A DNA stretch of 64,000 nucleotides from the NCBI GenBank assembly GCA_017883235.1, contig JADGNY010000001.1:62001-126000 (forward strand), read 5' to 3'. Positions within the stretch are counted from its first letter, which is position 1, and each line of letters opens with the position of its first letter. The notes beneath the pieces are model-generated. The model saw nothing but the letters and a program-made list of their open reading frames with translations. It searched no databases and was not told where the DNA came from. The DNA is from Thermoanaerobaculia bacterium (lineage in GTDB: Bacteria > Acidobacteriota > Thermoanaerobaculia > Gp7-AA8). The translations under genes were made by a program, and so were the position numbers. Of this stretch, positions 31,253-44,055 are shown piece after piece.

Positions 31253-32341
31253 CTACGCGACCGGATAAATCGGATCGTTGAGAGGTGCCTTGGCCAGAGC
31301 ATCCAGCCGGGCCGCATGCGGCGTCAACGGCGTGGGACGGTAGTCGATGTCGCGCCAGCGCTCGATGATCGACCGGTGGAAGTACTCGGTTTTGAACTTC
31401 GTGGCACCGACCGTTCGATTCGCTCCGCTGAAGGTATAGACGATCGACTTCGAGTTGTGCACCGCCTGTTTGTAATCAGGGCTTGTCGGGAGTGCGCTGA
31501 TTGCCTTTTGGTCGTACTCGAGCCCGGCGGTCTCCGCCGACGCCATCATCCATTCAAAGGCGATGTCGGAGAGTCCGTGCTCCGGATAGCCGCCACCGAC
31601 GTCGCTGTGGGCGCCGGCGAACCAGACCTGCTGCACCATCTGTCCCGGATCGGGCTGGCTTTCCCAGAGCGTGGGCAGGAATGGATGGCGATGCTCGTCG
31701 ATGGCGAGGGCGTGGAACGCGAATTTAGCGGCACGGCTCAGGCTCGTGTCGAGAAACTGGAACTCCTTCTGATTCCAGGCACCAAAGGCCCGAAGCGGGA
31801 TGCCGAGGGCTCCGACTGTGTCCCAGACACCGACGCACTGGATGGGCGTGTCCGGCTCGATCGCGTAGGCGTTCTTGAACTTGACCGCGGCCGGATTGTC
31901 GGGCTTGACACCGCTCCGGTAGAGGGTCTTCGCGTCGGGATATTGCCTGACGGCGTCGCGGCGGAGAATGCCACAGCGGCGGATCATGCCGGCGATGCTG
32001 CGCGCCGTGTACGCGCCTCGGCTGAATCCGAAGAGATAGATGGAGTCGCCAGGCTCGTAGTTGGCGATGAGAAAACGGTAGGCGTCGTTGATGTTTCCTT
32101 CCAGCCCGTCACCGAACGCACCGCCGCCGATGCGGTCGGCGAGGTTCCCGGTTCCCACACCCTGGTCGTAGTAGACGATCTGCAGTGAACCGTCTTTTTT
32201 CCCCTTAGCGACCCGGCAGGCGATCTTGAGGACATTGGTGACACACAGGTCTTCCGTCACCTTACCGTTCACTTCGACCTTCTTCTTCTCCTGATCGGCG
32301 CTGTTCCAGGTTCCATCGCAGCAGAGGATGATGCTGGCCAT
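31253..32341 (-). CDS. DUF2235 alpha/beta-hydrolase
   Basis: DUF2235 proteins include the Tle1-type phospholipase effectors of type VI secretion and many cytosolic homologues. The 362-residue protein has the N-terminal nucleophile-fold start MASIILCCDGTWNSADQ, the nucleophile elbow FGFSRGAYTARSIAGM near residue 106, and a catalytic Asp/His region HSDVGGGYPEHGLSD near 230. There is no signal peptide and no VgrG, PAAR or T6SS gene nearby, so secretion is unsupported. A paralogue is at 37357. Confidence 0.85.
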   Translation of the reverse strand: MASIILCCDGTWNSADQEKKKVEVNGKVTEDLCVTNVLKIACRVAKGKKDGSLQIVYYDQGVGTGNLADRIGGGAFGDGLEGNINDAYRFLIANYEPGDSIYLFGFSRGAYTARSIAGMIRRCGILRRDAVRQYPDAKTLYRSGVKPDNPAAVKFKNAYAIEPDTPIQCVGVWDTVGALGIPLRAFGAWNQKEFQFLDTSLSRAAKFAFHALAIDEHRHPFLPTLWESQPDPGQMVQQVWFAGAHSDVGGGYPEHGLSDIAFEWMMASAETAGLEYDQKAISALPTSPDYKQAVHNSKSIVYTFSGANRTVGATKFKTEYFHRSIIERWRDIDYRPTPLTPHAARLDALAKAPLNDPIYPVA

Positions 32342-36073: not shown

Positions 36074-37111
36074 ATGCTCGACGACATCACACGCATCCAT
36101 CACGAATTCGACGCCGCCCTCGCCGGCGCCAACACCGCCGCCGCGCTCGACGAGCTGCGCGTCCACTACTTCGGCCGCAAGGGCGGCCTGATCCCCGCGC
36201 TCTTCGCACGCCTCAAGGAAGTGCCGAAGGAGCAGAAGAAGGACGCCGGCGACGCGCTGAACAAGCTCCGCGACCGCCTCGAGTCGGAGCTGAAGGAAAA
36301 GCACGAGCGCATCGCCGCCGAGGAGTCGAAGCGGAAGGAGACGCGCGACATCATCGACGTCACCCTCCCCCCCCGCCTTCCCAACCTCGGCCACCTTCAT
36401 CCCGTGACCATCGTCCGCCGCGAGATGGAGACCATCTTCGCCGAGATGGGCTATTCGCTCGATCCCGGCCCCGAGGTCGAGACCGACTGGTACAACTTCG
36501 AAGCGCTCAACTTCACCCCCGACCACCCGGCCCGCGATACGCAGGACACGTTCTTCCTCAATGCATTTCTCAACGCTGAACCATACCTCCTGCGCACCCA
36601 CACCTCGAACGTGCAGATCCGATCGATGGAGAAGTACAAGCCGCCGGTGAAGGTGCTCTCCTGCGGCCGCGTCTACCGCCGCGACGAGATCACCATGCGC
36701 CGCTCGCCGATGTTCCATCAGGCCGAGGGCTTCCTCGTCGACAAAGGGATCCACATCGGCCACCTCCGCGCCACGCTCGAGCACTTCATCAAGCGCCTCT
36801 TCGGCGCCGACTCGAAGATGCGCATGCGCCCGAGCTTTTTCCCCTTCACCGAACCGTCCGCCGAAGTCGACATGTCGTGTGTGTTTTGTAAAGGTTCCGG
36901 CTGTGGGACCTGCTCTCAAACCGGCTGGATGGAGATCCTCGGCTGCGGCATGATCCACCCCCAGGTCCTCCGCAACGTCGGCATCGACCCCGAGGAATGG
37001 AGCGGCTTCGCCTTCGGCCTCGGCCTCGACCGCTGCGCCATGATCAAGTTCGACATCCCGAACATCCGGACGCTGTTCGAGAACGATCTGAGGGTGCTGC
37101 AGCAGTTCTAA
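36074..37111 (+). CDS. pheS: phenylalanyl-tRNA synthetase alpha chain
   Basis: This is the catalytic chain of the heterotetrameric enzyme. I chose 36074 (MLDDITRIHHEFDAALAG); the 22 codons before it lie in a dispersed repeat. The 345-residue protein has an N-terminal coiled coil (about 1-85), the catalytic core from HPVTIVRREMETIFAEMGYS, motif 2 SCGRVYRRDEITMRRSPMFH, the Cys-rich loop CVFCKGSGCGTCSQTGWMEI, and motif 3 GFAFGLGLDRCAMIKFDIPN. pheT does not follow. Confidence 0.97.
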   Translation: MLDDITRIHHEFDAALAGANTAAALDELRVHYFGRKGGLIPALFARLKEVPKEQKKDAGDALNKLRDRLESELKEKHERIAAEESKRKETRDIIDVTLPPRLPNLGHLHPVTIVRREMETIFAEMGYSLDPGPEVETDWYNFEALNFTPDHPARDTQDTFFLNAFLNAEPYLLRTHTSNVQIRSMEKYKPPVKVLSCGRVYRRDEITMRRSPMFHQAEGFLVDKGIHIGHLRATLEHFIKRLFGADSKMRMRPSFFPFTEPSAEVDMSCVFCKGSGCGTCSQTGWMEILGCGMIHPQVLRNVGIDPEEWSGFAFGLGLDRCAMIKFDIPNIRTLFENDLRVLQQF

Positions 37112-37164
37112 CTCCCGCTTTCACACGCACCTTCATTCACGAGCCGTTCCTAGCGCAACGTCAC

Positions 37165-37356
37165 CGAGCGATTTTTTGGGACCTCACCGATAAACGCATT
37201 CGCCGCAGAACGTTCACTTCAGTCGACGAGCTGAATAAGGCGATCTTCGAACTAGAAAGACTGAGCGCATCCTCTCCCTTTCTCTTCGCCGTGCTTTCCA
37301 ATGGCAATCGATCAAAGGTGGAGATAGGGAAACCCTCCGGCGTGTTACTCTCATAA
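37165..37356 (+). pseudogene. possible remnant of an IS630-type transposase C-terminus
   Basis: An open frame with no start of its own reads RAIFWDLTDKRIRRRTFTSV then DELNKAIFELERL. This resembles the FF-LT-RIRRG-F-SV-EL-AI ending of IS630-family transposases. The following 30 residues (SPFLFAVLSNGNRSKVEIG) are not typical, so this may be a chimaera or another small gene. It sits exactly where pheT would be expected and stops directly at the start of the next gene. Confidence 0.35.
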
Positions 37357-38760
37357 GTGAGGTGGCTCGTGAACACTTTGGTTCGACTTGGGGTACTCAT
37401 CATGGCGGTCGAAAGCATGCGCGCGGGTGCGGGGCAGGCTGCGCAAACTGAGACTACACCGTCGCGCGCGCCGCGGCGGATCGTGCTCTGTCTTGACGGG
37501 ACATGGAACGGCGCGTTCGATGAGACGAAGCGACGCGACGGCCAAACGGTACTGAAGCCGACAAACCCGCTCAAGCTTTGCCGGGCCGTGAAGCCGTTCG
37601 ATGATAAGGGCGTGGGGCAGATCGCTTACTACGCGATCGGTGTTGGTTCGCTCTCCGTCTACCCAGGAACCTCGAACTGGCTGCTGCACCATTTCGACCG
37701 CATCCTCGGCGGCGCATTCGGCGCTGGATTCGAGGGAAACGTCGAAGATGCGTTGCATTTTCTAACGTTGAACTACGAGCCGGGCGATGAAGTATACATC
37801 TTCGGCTTTAGCCGCGGTGCGGGCACCGCGCGCGCCGTTACGAAGTTTCTGGAGTGGAACCGCGGCGTGCCACAAAAGGGCGATGCCTACTACCTGCCGC
37901 TACTCTTTCGCGAATACCTTCGCGTTCAGGGTGGTACAGATGACCGTCAGTACGAGCGCTTCAAAGACAAACTCGACGACGAGAACAAGAAACGACCCCA
38001 AAAGAAACCGTTAGAGCGGTTCACGCCCGTGACGGTCCGCTACCTTGGCGTGTGGGACACGGTCATGGCGCTCGGATCACGGCTGAATTCGAGGGGTGCG
38101 AACACCTCGTCGCAGAATCGAGCCTTCTTTGCCGGCGATGCTCCGGCTTCGTGTGTCAAGCGCGCACGGCAGGCGCTAGCCATCGACGAGCGCCGCTTCG
38201 ATTTCCGTCCCGAGGTTTGGATCAAAGCCCTCGATGGCCAAGAGGTTGAGCAACGCTGGTTCGCAGGCGTGCATTCGAACGTCGGTGGGGGCTACCTTCA
38301 CGACGGACTGGCCAACGTCGCGTTCCACTGGGTCATGAACGGTGCCGAGAAAGAGGGGCTGCAGGTCGATCATGCCTTCGCCGATGTTTACGAAGGAGGT
38401 TCGCTCGACTCTCTGTACCAATCGTCAACGCCGTTCTACCAAGTCTTCGATCTTATCCGCAACACGGTCGGACGCGGTGAGCGTGAGCTTCATGGATTCC
38501 ACGCCGACCTCTCCCCGTCGGTCATCGAGAGAATGCGCGCCAAACCTTCCGAAGTGTTGGACAGCGAGCGTCAGCCTTCTTCGAAGCCTTACCGGCCTGA
38601 GAACGTCCTGCGCTTCCTCGCTGCTCAGCCGAACCTCGACTCATATCTTCAGGAAATCGGGCTGAAGAACGTTGCGATCAAAGATCTACCGGAGGATGTG
38701 CAGGAGCGGATCAAGACGCTTCGGGCAACTTCCGCTGCTATAGGCGGGGCTCGGCCATGA
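37357..38760 (+). CDS. DUF2235 alpha/beta-hydrolase, operon gene 1
   Basis: The 467-residue protein has a GTG start; the ATG at 37402 is an alternative. The fold starts RRIVLCLDGTWNGAFDETKR, with the nucleophile elbow IFGFSRGAGTARAVTKFLEW near residues 148-167 and the catalytic Asp/His region GVHSNVGGGYLHDGLANVAF near 306-325. A short hydrophobic stretch at the N-terminus could be a weak signal or an artefact of the upstream start. It is longer than the paralogue at 31253. Its stop overlaps the next start (ATGA). The likely chemistry is ester or phospholipid hydrolysis, unproven. Confidence 0.82.
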   Translation: MRWLVNTLVRLGVLIMAVESMRAGAGQAAQTETTPSRAPRRIVLCLDGTWNGAFDETKRRDGQTVLKPTNPLKLCRAVKPFDDKGVGQIAYYAIGVGSLSVYPGTSNWLLHHFDRILGGAFGAGFEGNVEDALHFLTLNYEPGDEVYIFGFSRGAGTARAVTKFLEWNRGVPQKGDAYYLPLLFREYLRVQGGTDDRQYERFKDKLDDENKKRPQKKPLERFTPVTVRYLGVWDTVMALGSRLNSRGANTSSQNRAFFAGDAPASCVKRARQALAIDERRFDFRPEVWIKALDGQEVEQRWFAGVHSNVGGGYLHDGLANVAFHWVMNGAEKEGLQVDHAFADVYEGGSLDSLYQSSTPFYQVFDLIRNTVGRGERELHGFHADLSPSVIERMRAKPSEVLDSERQPSSKPYRPENVLRFLAAQPNLDSYLQEIGLKNVAIKDLPEDVQERIKTLRATSAAIGGARP

Positions 38761-40742
38761 GCGCGGGTAGGAATCGCGCCACGAGCGGACAGGGCTTCGC
38801 CCGGTCGCTGCCAAAGGCAAAAAGCTCGCAGCTTACCCCTGCGCCACAACCGCCCTCCCAGTCGTCGAAAAGAAAGAGACCGGAAGTTCCGCAGCCAGTT
38901 GCTCGACCGCTGAAGGCGTACGCGTTCGATCCGAGCGTTGGCAAACTCCTCGGAAACGAGATGACGCTGTCCGTGCGCTACCAGAAGCTCGACCGGGGAC
39001 CGACCGTCCTTGATCGCACGGCGGACGGGATCGCCATCGTCGACTACGACGGAGCGAACGGCTGGTACTACCTCCCGGTCGATCTCGACGATGCGCGCAT
39101 TCTCATCTGCGGCGGACTCGAACCATCCGAGGCGAACCCGCGCTTCCATCAGCAGATGGTATACGCGGTTGTCTCCGAGACCATCGAGCATTTCGAGAGA
39201 GCGCTCGGCCGGCGCATCCACTGGCGCCGCGGCCTATGGGATGGGCGCAAACATCCCGAGCGGGAGAAAATCGGGACGCTCCTTCTGTTGCCCCACGCGT
39301 TCATCGGTCAGAACGCGTTTTACAGTCCAGAGGCACATGGGATTCTCTTCGGTTATTTCCGCGCCGATCGCGATGCCACGGGTAACACTTTGCCGGGACA
39401 GACGGTCTACACTTGCCTCTCGCATGACATCATCGTCCACGAGACGACGCACGCGATCGTCGACGGAATCCGGACGTATTTCACCGAGCAGACGAATCCC
39501 GACGTACCTGCTTTTCACGAGGCCTTCGCCGATCTAGCGGCACTCTTTCGCCACTTCTCGCACAAGCAGGTGCTGCGGGACACGATCGAGCGGACGGGCG
39601 GTGCGCTTTATCAGTATCAGCTCCGCCCCGACGCGGCGATCTCGGCCGCTGACGCCTATGCTGGCGACAAAGACGGCACGCCGGTTGGGAGCTTCGAGGT
39701 CAGCGGTCGGAATCCGCTCGTCGAGTTGGCGAAGCAGTTCGGAGAGGCGACTGGGCGGCAGCGAGCCCTCCGCTCCGCCCTGGGTACGAAGCCGAATTTA
39801 AACGACATCCAGAAGTTGATGGAACCGCACGCGCGCGGCTCGATTCTGGTCGCCGCCGTCTTCGACGCGTTCTTCGCCATCTTCATCCAGCGGACGTCCG
39901 ACCTCTGGCGTATTTACCGTGCTGGAGGCGGCAGCGACCATCCGACGGACATCCCGACCGCGCTAGCAGATCGCCTCTGCGACGAGGCCACCGGGTTGTC
40001 TGAACAGTTCTTCCTTATCTGCGTGCGGGCTCTCGACTACTGCCCTCCCGTTGACATCACCTTCGGCGATTACCTGCGTGCGATCGTGACTGCGGACGTC
40101 GATCTCCAGCCGCGCGGTGAGGGAGGGATTCGCGGGGCGATAATGCAGTCGTTTCGGCTGCGCGGCATCGTGCCGGACGATGCCGACTACTTTTCCGAGA
40201 GGTCGATCGCCTGGCCGTCCGCTGAGTCGCGCCAGTTACCACCTATCATCGGCCTCCGCTTCGGCGACGGTAACGGCCTCACCCACAAGCAGGCGGACAA
40301 GGTGGGAAAGGTGCTGCGGAGATATCTAGACAACCCGTCCACTCGTGCCGATCTCGGTTTCGATCCGACCCTTCCCGTGACGCTCCCCTCTTTCCATCCC
40401 GCGTTCCGCATCAACTACGACGGCAGTCTGCGCATGGACCTGATCGCGGAGGTCGTACAGACGCGGGAGCAAACGGTGAACCCAAACGTTCCCGCCTTCG
40501 GCACCTTCCCGCTACGCGGCGGGGCGACGCTGATCATCCAGCGGCCTACTGTGGATGAGATCGTCGCGACCGACGATCGCACCGCGAAGATCCGCTATGT
40601 GATCGGGAAACACCTGCACGGGCCGGAGGGGGACCTGCGGCTGATGCGGCAACGCCGCTACTGCGAGCGGCTCGGACTCGAGGGCGACGACGGGGCGAGC
40701 CGTTTCCGCATCAACTTCGCTATGACCCACGAGGGACTTTGA
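38757..40742 (+). CDS. HExxH metallopeptidase-like protein, operon gene 2
   Basis: The 661-residue protein has a gluzincin-like zinc site: HETTH at residues 228-232 and a downstream HEAFAD whose Glu (about 255) would be the third ligand. That Glu is 23 residues after the second His, against 20 in thermolysin. A basic, Pro/Ser-rich leader (1-50) precedes the domain; there is no signal peptide. The C-terminal 350 residues match nothing I recognise and include segments such as RLIGLRFGDG-type strands. It is coupled to the DUF2235 gene by ATGA and to the next gene by a 1-bp gap. The substrate is unknown. Confidence 0.7.
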   Translation: MSAGRNRATSGQGFARSLPKAKSSQLTPAPQPPSQSSKRKRPEVPQPVARPLKAYAFDPSVGKLLGNEMTLSVRYQKLDRGPTVLDRTADGIAIVDYDGANGWYYLPVDLDDARILICGGLEPSEANPRFHQQMVYAVVSETIEHFERALGRRIHWRRGLWDGRKHPEREKIGTLLLLPHAFIGQNAFYSPEAHGILFGYFRADRDATGNTLPGQTVYTCLSHDIIVHETTHAIVDGIRTYFTEQTNPDVPAFHEAFADLAALFRHFSHKQVLRDTIERTGGALYQYQLRPDAAISAADAYAGDKDGTPVGSFEVSGRNPLVELAKQFGEATGRQRALRSALGTKPNLNDIQKLMEPHARGSILVAAVFDAFFAIFIQRTSDLWRIYRAGGGSDHPTDIPTALADRLCDEATGLSEQFFLICVRALDYCPPVDITFGDYLRAIVTADVDLQPRGEGGIRGAIMQSFRLRGIVPDDADYFSERSIAWPSAESRQLPPIIGLRFGDGNGLTHKQADKVGKVLRRYLDNPSTRADLGFDPTLPVTLPSFHPAFRINYDGSLRMDLIAEVVQTREQTVNPNVPAFGTFPLRGGATLIIQRPTVDEIVATDDRTAKIRYVIGKHLHGPEGDLRLMRQRRYCERLGLEGDDGASRFRINFAMTHEGL

Positions 40743-40743
40743 A

Positions 40744-42237
40744 ATGGCAACTACGAAAAAGAGCGCAACGAAGCAGAGAAAATCTGTCGCGACGACACCA
40801 AAGAATGTCGTTTCCAAGGCTCAGAGTCCGTCTGAAATCGCGACGCGCGTGGGACTGCGCGTGCGAATGTACCGCGTCGGCTTCGGCGATTTCTTTTTGC
40901 TGACGGTGACCGCGCCGGACGGGTCGAAGCATCACGTACTCATCGACTGCGGCGTTACGCCGGGCACGACGCACGCGGGCGACATCGGCACGATCAAGGA
41001 AGCGGTGGCCGACATGGCGCGTGAGACGGACAACAAGCTGGCCCTCATCATCGCGACACATCGGCACATGGATCATATTATCGGCTTCAGCCGTTGCGAA
41101 GAGATCTTCAAGGCCATGACTGTCGACGCGATCTGGATGTCGTACTGGGAGTCGGAGTATGACCAGCAGGCGCAGCCGACGGCGGCAAAGAAGTTCCAGG
41201 ACCAGCTGACGGCAAATGCCCTCGTTGCGCAGCAGAGGCTGGCGCTGGCGGCGGGGTCGAGCATTGAGGTTGATGCCATTCTGGCCATGCTTTACAACGC
41301 TACCGGCCTCGATCCGACGGCGGGTCAGCAGTCGGCGCTGGCCGCTACGGCCGCTGGCGTCCCGACGGGCAAGGGTGGCGGAAGCAACCCCCGTTCGCTG
41401 GCGCTGCTCAAGGGTGGCCTCGGCCCAAAGCCCGAGTACTACAAGAACGGCGACGAGCCGAAGCTGCCGCAGTCGCTCGTCGATGCGGGCCTGACCGCGG
41501 AGATCCTCGGTCCGCCGCCCGCCGACGCTGTAGCTTTCCTGCAGCTCACTGACCTGCAGAAGGGCGTGGGACAGTATCTCGGCGAATCCGGCAGCGAGGA
41601 CAGCGACAAGTTCGATCCCTTCGGTACTCTCTGGCACGCCACATCAGACGACTATCCCAAGCGCCCGTTCGGCGAGTTTTCGGGAGTGGCTGCGCTTCAG
41701 GATGCGGTGAAGGCATCGCAGCCGAGTGCGCTCCTTACAGCAGTAAAGAAGCTCGACGACTGTCTCAACAACCAGAGCCTCGTCGTGCTTTTCAAGTTCG
41801 GCGGCAAGAATCTTCTTTTTGCCGGCGACGCGCAGGGTGGCAACTGGGAGTACTGGATGTACGGCGGGACGCCCGACAAAGCACCCTCGATCGACAAGAT
41901 CTCGCCAGAGGGTAAAAGAATACTCACACAACTCGACTTCTACAAAGTCGGCCACCATGGCAGCACGAATGCGACGCCGGTCTCAGCCGTTGACGCGATG
42001 TCGGGGAGCTTCGTCTCCATGTGCTCAACTCAAGAGAAGACTTACGGGACGCTGTCCAAGGGAACCGAAGTGCCGCGCCTCCCGCTTCTTGAGGCCCTCG
42101 CGAAAAAAAGCAGCGTCGTGGTCCGAAGCGACCAGATCGCAGTCGCCGCCGGAGGCGGCATTCCGGCGGTCTCGGCCCCGCCCGACCTTCCGTCATCGTT
42201 CGAGCTGGGAGCGGTGTACATCGACTACAACCTCTGA
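40744..42237 (+). CDS. ComEC-like metallo-beta-lactamase-fold hydrolase, operon gene 3
   Basis: The 497-residue protein has a Lys-rich N-terminus (1-35, TKKSATKQRKS). It then follows the ComEC/Rec2-type MBL order: GFGDFFLLTV and HVLIDCG, the metal motif THRHMDHIIGF (H106, H108, D110, H111), an inserted region of about 200 residues, LLFAGDAQGGNW (bridging Asp) and YKVGHHGSTNATP (final His). ComEC-type MBL domains are DNA nucleases, but no membrane segments are present here. The basic N-terminus would fit nucleic-acid binding. It begins 1 bp after the peptidase stop. Confidence 0.8.
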   Translation: MATTKKSATKQRKSVATTPKNVVSKAQSPSEIATRVGLRVRMYRVGFGDFFLLTVTAPDGSKHHVLIDCGVTPGTTHAGDIGTIKEAVADMARETDNKLALIIATHRHMDHIIGFSRCEEIFKAMTVDAIWMSYWESEYDQQAQPTAAKKFQDQLTANALVAQQRLALAAGSSIEVDAILAMLYNATGLDPTAGQQSALAATAAGVPTGKGGGSNPRSLALLKGGLGPKPEYYKNGDEPKLPQSLVDAGLTAEILGPPPADAVAFLQLTDLQKGVGQYLGESGSEDSDKFDPFGTLWHATSDDYPKRPFGEFSGVAALQDAVKASQPSALLTAVKKLDDCLNNQSLVVLFKFGGKNLLFAGDAQGGNWEYWMYGGTPDKAPSIDKISPEGKRILTQLDFYKVGHHGSTNATPVSAVDAMSGSFVSMCSTQEKTYGTLSKGTEVPRLPLLEALAKKSSVVVRSDQIAVAAGGGIPAVSAPPDLPSSFELGAVYIDYNL

Positions 42238-43510: not shown

Positions 43511-43760
43511 CTGGTAAGTCCGCGACTCCGCGAATCCAGAAGTGGACTCCGCGAGTCCAGTAGTGGATTCCACGAGTCCAGTAGTGGACTCCACGAGTCC
43601 AGTAGTGGACTCCACGAGTCCAGTAGTGGACTCCGCGAGTCCAGTAGTGGGACTCCGCGAGTCCAGTAGTGGACTCCGCGGGTCCAGTAGTGGACTCCGC
43701 GAGTCCAGTAGTGGACTCCACGAGGCCATTAGTGGACTCCACGAGGCCACCTAGTGGCCT
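43511..43760. repeat. minisatellite B1: TGGACTC-CAC-GAGTCCA hairpin units
   Basis: About ten units of 21 bp (gtccagtagtggactccacga with ccgcga variants). Each contains a perfect 7-bp stem with a 3-nt loop. One unit has an extra g at 43650, which breaks any reading frame. Units near 43730-43760 grade into the next array through ggccattagtgg and ggccacctagtgg. Confidence 0.88.
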
Positions 43761-44055
43761 CCACGAGACCACCTAGTGGTCTCCAGAGGTCACTAGGTGG
43801 TCTCCAGAGGTCACTAGGTGGTCTCCAGAGGTCACTAGGTGGCCTCCAGGAGGTCACTAGGTGGCCTCCAGGAGGTCACTAGGTGGTCTCCAGAGGTCAC
43901 TTAGGTGGCTTCCAGGAGGTCACTAGGTGGTCTCCAGAGGTCACTAGGTGGCCTCCAGAGGTCACCAGGTGGTCTCCAGAGGTCACTAGGTGGACTCCAG
44001 GAGGTCACCAGGTGGACTCCAAAAGCTCACTAATGGATTCCACGAGTCCATTAGC
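43761..44055. repeat. minisatellite B2: GGTCACTAGGTGGTCTCCAGA units
   Basis: About twelve units of 21-22 bp. Variants with ggcctccaggaggtcac form near-perfect 9-bp stems around a single base. The last units revert towards the B1 type (actaatggattccacgagtccattag). It ends about 50 bp before the molybdenum hydroxylase gene. Confidence 0.88.

What the first reader, a model, noticed from the sequence alone, without database searches (positions are those of the whole stretch)
37357..42237. Coupled operon of DUF2235 lipase-like, HExxH peptidase-like and ComEC-like MBL proteins
Three long genes are joined by a 4-bp overlap (38757) and a 1-bp gap (40742/40744). Each carries an apparently intact active site for a different polymer class: lipid ester (GFSRGA), protein (HETTH plus Glu) and nucleic acid (THRHMDH with HHGST). 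None has a convincing signal peptide, and no secretion genes adjoin. The operon replaces pheT behind pheS and follows a possible transposase scrap. Combining lipase, protease and nuclease-like activities in one cassette is what one expects of a conflict or cell-suicide module. That role is my inference; I know of no described system with this gene trio.
Basis: partly seen in the sequence, partly recalled or inferred. Interest (0 to 1): 0.75.

Follow-up and report, generated by a model that had tools for sequence, protein, structure and literature searches.

The report
Metallopeptidase–nuclease pair with swappable lipase
Three joined bacterial genes encode a cell-internal protein-cutter, a DNA-cutter that looks locked until it is cut, and a membrane-lipid cutter; the first two travel together across many bacterial phyla while the third is swapped, which makes this a likely, untested self-destruct defence module built like recently described protease-activated nuclease systems but with a different protease.

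Summary
The three genes, their coupling and their active-site motifs are real. The unit is not a fixed trio. It is a conserved PAIR plus a swappable partner. The pair is a cytosolic-looking M4/M36-fold HETTH metallopeptidase followed directly by a ComEC-type MBL protein, adjacent in 78 of 79 testable homologous loci. Catalytic residues are invariant and the two proteins co-evolve tightly (Mantel r 0.905). The partner beside it is a patatin, a DUF2235/Tle1-like lipase, a PLD-like protein or an alpha/beta-hydrolase, an N-terminally fused subtilase, or nothing recognised. Pairs with DUF2235 recur in at least four unrelated loci. The MBL carries about 160 extra residues between HxHxDH and GD compared with ComEC, where the protease-gated pro-nucleases of Hachiman/AVAST (Tuck et al. 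2025, PMC12799240) carry their autoinhibitory insertions. Best reading: infection or damage activates the peptidase, which unlocks the MBL nuclease, with the lipase as a second membrane-directed effector. Enzyme classes and pairing are shown; activation, trigger and phage defence are inferred. For defence: transfer across phyla, an occupied/empty-site difference, and plasmid neighbours including CBASS, Hachiman and SIR2. Against: no defence-gene enrichment around chromosomal copies. 'Replaces pheT' and 'transposase scrap' are not supported. A new variant of a known kind.

The parts
37357..38760 (+). DUF2235/Tle1-like (PF09994) alpha/beta-hydrolase lipase candidate, 467 aa; alternative in-frame ATG start at 37402; the swappable partner gene
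   Evidence: Pfam E 2.7e-63; GFSRGA Ser152, Asp, His context invariant in 9 homologues; GC3 0.69 versus 0.89 for pheS/thrS
37804..37821 (+). GFSRGA nucleophile elbow of the lipase (residues 150-155)
   Evidence: translation; invariant positions G150-A155
38757..40742 (+). HETTH metallopeptidase, 661 aa: M4/M36-fold domain (~46-490) plus a C-terminal domain whose weak matches are small cone-like folds; no signal peptide; core gene
   Evidence: AlphaFold2 pLDDT 83.5; VIA Z 22.6 over 313 residues to M36 fungalysin 7z6t, 18.9 to M4 vibriolysin/elastase; no Pfam/NCBIfam/PADLOC hit; hydropathy
39438..39452 (+). HETTH zinc-site motif (residues 228-232)
   Evidence: H228, E229, H232 invariant in 51 homologues
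39513..39533 (+). FHEAFAD segment (residues 253-259) with third zinc ligand E255 and D259
   Evidence: H254, E255, D259 invariant
40744..42237 (+). ComEC-type metallo-beta-lactamase-fold nuclease candidate, 497 aa; core gene
   Evidence: VIA Z 23.6 over 253 residues to the ComEC nuclease domain 9ic4; profile E 1e-12 to ComEC 9vc6; PADLOC LmuA E 3e-15
41056..41076 (+). THRHMDH metal-binding motif (residues 105-111)
   Evidence: H106, H108, D110, H111 invariant in 56 homologues
41077..41766 (+). 230-residue stretch between HxHxDH and N342 (motif gap to GD 249 versus 87-91 in ComEC) holding the putative gating insertion(s); low-confidence loops at residues 191-210 and 281-300
41617..41622 (+). 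P292-F293, conserved 80% and 96%, inside the low-confidence loop: candidate cleavage site for the partner peptidase (inference)
   Evidence: conservation; pLDDT
41953..41967 (+). HHGST metal-binding/active-site motif (residues 404-408)
   Evidence: K401, H404, H405, S407, N409 invariant

Best explanation
The locus is a mobile intracellular effector module. Its core is a metallopeptidase–pro-nuclease pair, and a lipase is attached as an exchangeable second effector. Proposed working: a trigger (phage infection or DNA/cell damage, unknown) activates the cytosolic M4/M36-like peptidase. The peptidase cuts the long insertion that sits between the metal-binding motifs of the ComEC-like MBL protein. 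The freed MBL active site then degrades DNA, while the DUF2235 lipase (patatin or PLD elsewhere) attacks membrane phospholipid. The infected cell stops or dies and the invader does not spread. Shown here: enzyme classes, intact active sites, near-obligate pairing, co-evolution, the insertion at the place of the known gates, partner swapping, and sporadic/mobile distribution. Inferred: proteolytic activation, DNA as substrate, lipid attack, the trigger, and defence as purpose.
For: MBL directly downstream of the peptidase in 78 of 79 testable loci. Mantel r 0.905 peptidase versus MBL (n=93; permuted maximum 0.081) against 0.403 for peptidase versus patatin (n=27). Gap from HxHxDH to GD: 194-291, median 246, window 249, versus 87-91 in four ComECs of related genomes. 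Loops 191-210 and 281-300 have low pLDDT, and F293 is 96% conserved in the second. Tuck et al. 2025 (PMC12799240) showed experimentally that ComEC-like MBL nucleases with insertions blocking the active site are proteolytically activated by an adjacent trypsin (Hachiman, AVAST) or caspase (Canu), and stated that homologues pair with other protease families. Partner swapping: 28 patatin, 15 subtilase fusions, 2 subtilase+DUF2235, 4 DUF2235, 3 PLD, 2 alpha/beta-hydrolase, 47 none, with at least 34 state changes on the peptidase tree. Phylum labels need 28 changes against a minimum of 11. 42 plasmids carry it, 21 predicted conjugative. Plasmid neighbours: CBASS (L112, L113), Hachiman (L111, L113), SIR2 (L146), ubiquitin-like/ThiF/JAB genes (L151, L152, L149, L110, L148); none of CBASS/Hachiman/SIR2/RM in 280 kb of control from the same plasmids. 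An N-terminal TPR-S sensor on one homologue and a caspase gene beside another. Insertion absent behind pheS of same-genus G001; GC3 lower than neighbouring genes.
Against: No experiment. Around chromosomal copies there is no PADLOC enrichment: 11 loci in the window's class versus control regions of the same genomes, and 100 nearest neighbours across phyla gave scattered hits. The strongest plasmid cases (L111-L113) are close relatives and not independent. About half of the loci have no recognised lipase. No sensor gene was identified in the window. That the insertion occludes the active site was not measured (no coordinates available), and only one conserved residue in a putative gate was found, not the two cut sites known in HamM/Avs1a.
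Confidence: 0.52

Rival explanations
1. Same enzymatic cascade (peptidase-activated MBL nuclease plus lipase), but for non-phage cell death or stress lysis: a response to DNA damage, starvation or plasmid loss, with no antiviral role.
For: No defence-gene enrichment around chromosomal copies; copies sit among unrelated metabolic genes; only one unverified phage-collection scaffold and six weak viral contigs carry relatives.
Against: Transfer across phyla and partner swapping, sporadic presence in 21 of 297 phylum genomes, and plasmid co-location with CBASS/Hachiman/SIR2 fit conflict genes better.
Confidence: 0.2
2. An effector cassette exported into other cells: the lipases belong to families used by type VI secretion (Tle1, PLD, patatin), and the MBL and peptidase would be co-delivered toxins or processing factors.
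For: PF09994 is named for T6SS Tle1 lipases.
Against: No T6SS sheath VipB in the own genome, scored 100% complete. No signal peptides in 101 peptidases and 98 MBLs except single outliers. Ten of 15 pair-bearing genomes lack any sheath gene. No secretion genes adjoin in the window.
Confidence: 0.1
3. The lipase is an incidental neighbour and only the peptidase-MBL pair is functional, possibly as a housekeeping turnover enzyme pair with a non-nucleic substrate (the MBL fold also resembles phosphorylcholine esterase).
For: 47 of 101 rows have no recognised lipase; Pce/CbpE is the second-best structural match of the MBL, Z 19.8 versus 23.6 for ComEC.
Against: The lipase overlaps or abuts the pair in many independent loci on the same strand; four unrelated lipase families recur there and are absent from all control regions scanned. 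Sporadic, mobile distribution is unlike housekeeping.
Confidence: 0.15

Closest known systems
Protease-gated MBL nuclease pairs in Hachiman (HamMAB) and AVAST type 1 (Avs1a/Avs1b), also Lamassu and DRT variants (Tuck et al. 2025, PMC12799240)
   Same: ComEC-like MBL protein with intact metal ligands, extra sequence between the HxHxDH and GD motifs, an adjacent co-evolving protease gene, transfer between lineages, intracellular
   Different: Partner is a zinc metallopeptidase of M4/M36 fold, not a trypsin fused to HamA/Avs/LmuA; gene order is protease then nuclease; no helicase/STAND/SMC/RT sensor; a lipase gene is often attached. Avs1a model score 36.9 versus cut-off 420
Canu caspase-nuclease systems (same paper)
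   Same: Stand-alone protease upstream of an MBL pro-nuclease, third gene of variable kind, TPR domains in some members (TPR-S on L107)
   Different: Caspase replaced by a metallopeptidase; a caspase gene stands beside the peptidase only in L102, which lacks the MBL
T6SS lipase effectors (Tle1/DUF2235, PLD-type) and CBASS patatin effectors (CapV)
   Same: Same enzyme families for membrane phospholipid attack
   Different: No T6SS in this genome, no cGAS-like cyclase in the operon; lipase tied to a peptidase-nuclease pair
Secreted M4 (thermolysin/elastase) and M36 (fungalysin) peptidases
   Same: Fold, HExxH...E zinc site
   Different: No signal peptide and no recognised propeptide domain; additional C-terminal domain; operon with an MBL gene

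Membership tests
Protease-gated MBL nuclease pairs (Tuck et al. 2025) | ComEC-like MBL nuclease fold with intact metal ligands | tested here: met
   Z 23.6 to 9ic4; invariant H106/H108/D110/H111/D362/H404
Protease-gated MBL nuclease pairs (Tuck et al. 2025) | Adjacent, co-inherited protease gene | tested here: met
   78 of 79 testable loci; Mantel r 0.905
Protease-gated MBL nuclease pairs (Tuck et al. 2025) | Extra insertion sequence between HxHxDH and GD relative to ComEC | tested here: met
   Gap 249 (family 194-291) versus 87-91 in ComEC
Protease-gated MBL nuclease pairs (Tuck et al. 2025) | Insertions occlude the active site and hold two conserved cleavage residues | tested here: inconclusive
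   Low-confidence loops 191-210 and 281-300; one strongly conserved candidate, F293; occlusion not measurable without coordinates
Protease-gated MBL nuclease pairs (Tuck et al. 2025) | Proteolytic activation of DNase and antiphage activity | not testable with these tools
   Needs biochemistry and plaque assays
AVAST type 1 / Hachiman HamMAB | Trypsin-like protease fused to STAND or HamA core; Avs1a family score | tested here: not met
   No trypsin, STAND or HamA in the operon; Avs1a 36.9 bits versus cut-off 420
Canu | Caspase (C14) partner protease | tested here: not met
   Partner is an M4/M36-fold HExxH peptidase
6A-MBL anti-phage system (NCBIfam) | MBL equivalog score | tested here: not met
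   20.1 bits versus cut-off 220
Clan MA(E) metallopeptidase of M4/M36 type | Thermolysin/fungalysin fold with HExxH and downstream Glu | tested here: met
   Z 22.6 and 18.9; invariant zinc site
Clan MA(E) metallopeptidase of M4/M36 type | Secretion signal and propeptide of the classical secreted members | tested here: not met
   1 of 101 homologues with a hydrophobic N-terminus; no propeptide Pfam hit
T6SS Tle1 effector | Tle1-like catalytic domain | tested here: met
   PF09994 E 2.7e-63
T6SS Tle1 effector | T6SS apparatus in the genome | tested here: not met
   VipB/TssC absent from G000

The most novel reading that the evidence does not exclude
A previously undescribed, phylum-crossing immune module in which a cytosolic thermolysin/fungalysin-type zinc peptidase is the activator of a gated ComEC-like nuclease and, through the same trigger, of a swappable phospholipase (or, in fused forms, works together with a subtilase): a bacterial proteolytic cascade that attacks DNA and membrane at once.
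Probability: 0.3. Interest if true: 0.82.

Novelty: new variant of a known kind. Interest (0 to 1): 0.64.

Why it matters
Protease-activated nucleases are a newly recognised principle of bacterial immunity that mirrors caspase cascades. A widespread branch using a zinc metallopeptidase, with a lipase that is exchanged like a cartridge, would show that the gated nuclease has been paired independently with several chemically unrelated proteases and coupled to membrane attack. It gives a concrete test: does the HETTH peptidase cut its MBL partner, and does that unleash DNase activity?

Tried and rejected
pheT replacement by the operon: rejected, pheT is elsewhere and pheS/pheT appear unlinked in relatives too. 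Transposase scrap at 36997-37356: no support. T6SS delivery: no VipB in the genome. Injection-system link: weak, size-confounded co-occurrence, not required. Defence-island enrichment on chromosomes: tested by PADLOC bags and not found. Phage carriage: only weak or unverified hits. Foldseek alone gave only a marginal match for the peptidase; VIA-align on its candidates settled the fold. Six literature searches for the trio or for single partners found nothing relevant; the gated-nuclease paper was found through AVAST, and later searches found no description of a metallopeptidase version. Its supplement (fig. S2, listing other protease families) could not be read, so prior mention of an M4/M36 clade there is not excluded. 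A first patatin motif pattern (GxSGG) was too strict; the family has SxSGG. An Avs1a family search was too unspecific to count systems, with 0 of 396 over the cut-off.

Full report
WHAT IS IN THE WINDOW. Three same-strand genes follow pheS: 37357-38760, 38757-40742 (4-bp overlap) and 40744-42237 (1-base gap). The first is a DUF2235/Tle1-like lipase domain protein (PF09994, E 2.7e-63), the third an MBL-fold protein. The second has no hit in Pfam, NCBIfam or PADLOC. Trio GC3 (0.69-0.77) is lower than that of pheS/thrS (0.89), as expected of acquired genes. In the same-genus genome G001, pheS is followed within about 150 bases by DNA matching window position ~42439 onward, with the trio missing. 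This is an empty-site difference; note that the upstream context of pheS in that contig differs, so it bears on the downstream side only. The pheT remark fails: pheT lies at G000:C149, and relatives lack pheT in the stretch fetched behind pheS.

THE REAL UNIT IS A PAIR PLUS A SWAPPABLE PARTNER. A genome-collection scan gave 477 relatives of the HETTH protein, of which the best 80 were kept. The MBL gene lies directly downstream in 78. One more locus ends at its contig edge (L058) and one truly lacks it (L102). Peptidase and MBL distances correlate at r 0.905 over 93 loci (permuted maximum 0.081); peptidase and patatin only at 0.403 over 27. Next to the pair, on either side, stand patatins (PF01734), DUF2235, PLD-like or alpha/beta-hydrolase proteins, or the peptidase carries an N-terminal subtilase. 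Among 101 rows: 28 patatin, 15 subtilase, 2 subtilase+DUF2235, 4 DUF2235, 3 PLD, 2 alpha/beta-hydrolase, 47 none recognised, needing at least 34 changes on the peptidase tree. In the window's own well-supported clade of 18, patatin, PLD, DUF2235 and 'none' all occur. DUF2235 contiguous with the pair recurs in L117 (Agrobacterium plasmid), L151 (Rhizobium plasmid) and L164 (a genome of the window's class), and lies close in L152, L079 and L146.

ENZYME IDENTITY. The HETTH model (pLDDT 83.5) aligns with M36 fungalysins at Z 22.6 over 313 residues and with M4 elastase/vibriolysin/thermolysin at Z 18-19. H228, E229, H232, E255 and D259 are invariant in 51 homologues. Classical members are secreted pre-pro-enzymes (established knowledge); here 1 of 101 homologues has a hydrophobic N-terminus and no propeptide family is hit. 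The MBL model (pLDDT 82.9) aligns with the ComEC nuclease domain at Z 23.6 over 253 residues and by profile at E 1e-12. Its metal ligands are invariant. DUF2235 nucleophile and neighbouring residues are invariant in nine members. 24 of 29 patatins satisfy a relaxed three-motif test.

THE GATE. Between HxHxDH and GD the MBL has 249 residues (family 194-291), while ComECs of related genomes have 87-91. Avs1a-like MBL proteins beside stand-alone subtilases (L229, L230) have 224-242. The extra stretch contains two low-confidence loops (about 191-210 and 281-300), the second with P292 (80%) and F293 (96%) conserved. Thermolysin-type enzymes favour bulky hydrophobic residues at P1' (established knowledge), so a cut before F293 is a fair but untested guess.

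WHAT IT WORKS LIKE. Tuck et al. 2025 (PMC12799240) showed that ComEC-like MBL nucleases in Hachiman and AVAST are pro-enzymes blocked by two insertions and opened by a partner trypsin, that Canu does the same with a caspase, and that homologues pair with proteases of other families. They name protease co-evolution and active-site-blocking insertions as hallmarks for finding more. The window's pair shows co-evolution and the insertion at the right place; blocking itself was not measured. The main text mentions no metallopeptidase, subtilisin, lipase or patatin; the supplement was not readable. Hence: works like a gated nuclease-protease pair, probable; member of AVAST1, Hachiman or Canu, no (failed defining features).

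DEFENCE OR NOT. For: transfer among at least twelve phyla, patchy presence (15 of 100 class genomes, 21 of 297 phylum genomes), plasmid carriage (42 records, 21 predicted conjugative), and plasmid neighbours including CBASS, Hachiman and SIR2, plus ubiquitin-like/ThiF/JAB genes, with none of CBASS/Hachiman/SIR2/RM in 280 kb of control from seven of the same plasmids (read by annotation). Also an N-terminal TPR-S domain in L107 and a caspase protein beside L102. Against: within the window's class, 81 neighbours of 11 loci gave only scattered generic PADLOC hits, and 90 control proteins gave mainly kinase hits; 100 nearest neighbours across phyla also showed no enrichment. The plasmid cases L111-L113 are near relatives. 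So defence is favoured, not shown. A stress-death role with the same biochemistry, or export through an injection system (no T6SS here; weak sheath association), remain possible.

VERDICT. A real, conserved and mobile module, ordinary in no single part, close in logic to a 2025 discovery but with a different protease class and an attached, exchangeable lipase. New variant of a known kind; confidence in the stated mechanism is about one half.

Noticed in passing
window 31253-32341 (-): A second, distantly related DUF2235 gene lies on the other side of thrS-infC-rplT-pheS; these two are the only PF09994 genes in the genome, and it is absent from the HEAT-thrS gap of same-genus G002.
   Followed up: partly
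L229:6252-9673 and L230:6396-9784: Subtilase (S8, ~690 aa) directly upstream of an Avs1a-like MBL with a 224-242 residue motif gap, without the HETTH protein: another possible protease-gated nuclease pair in the window's phylum.
   Followed up: partly
L102:4868-9731: A caspase (C14) + amidase protein ends 1 bp before a HETTH peptidase gene; no MBL follows.
   Followed up: no
L107:7227-9995: HETTH peptidase with an N-terminal TPR-S (PF20308) sensor-type domain.
   Followed up: no
own genome G000:C206:16227-17196: Another Avs1a-like MBL appears split over two frames: a decayed gene or a sequencing frameshift.
   Followed up: no
own genome G000:C120:35151-38500: Two contractile tail-sheath genes in tandem, suggestive of an extracellular contractile injection system.
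   Followed up: no
window 43524-44050: Two adjacent 21-bp tandem-repeat arrays (GTGGACTCC-type units, about 12 and 14 copies) between the trio and the xanthine-dehydrogenase-like gene.
   Followed up: partly
L111-L113 (Rhizobiaceae plasmids): Patatin-peptidase-MBL cassette sits between or beside CBASS and Hachiman operons, a compact multi-system defence cluster.
   Followed up: partly
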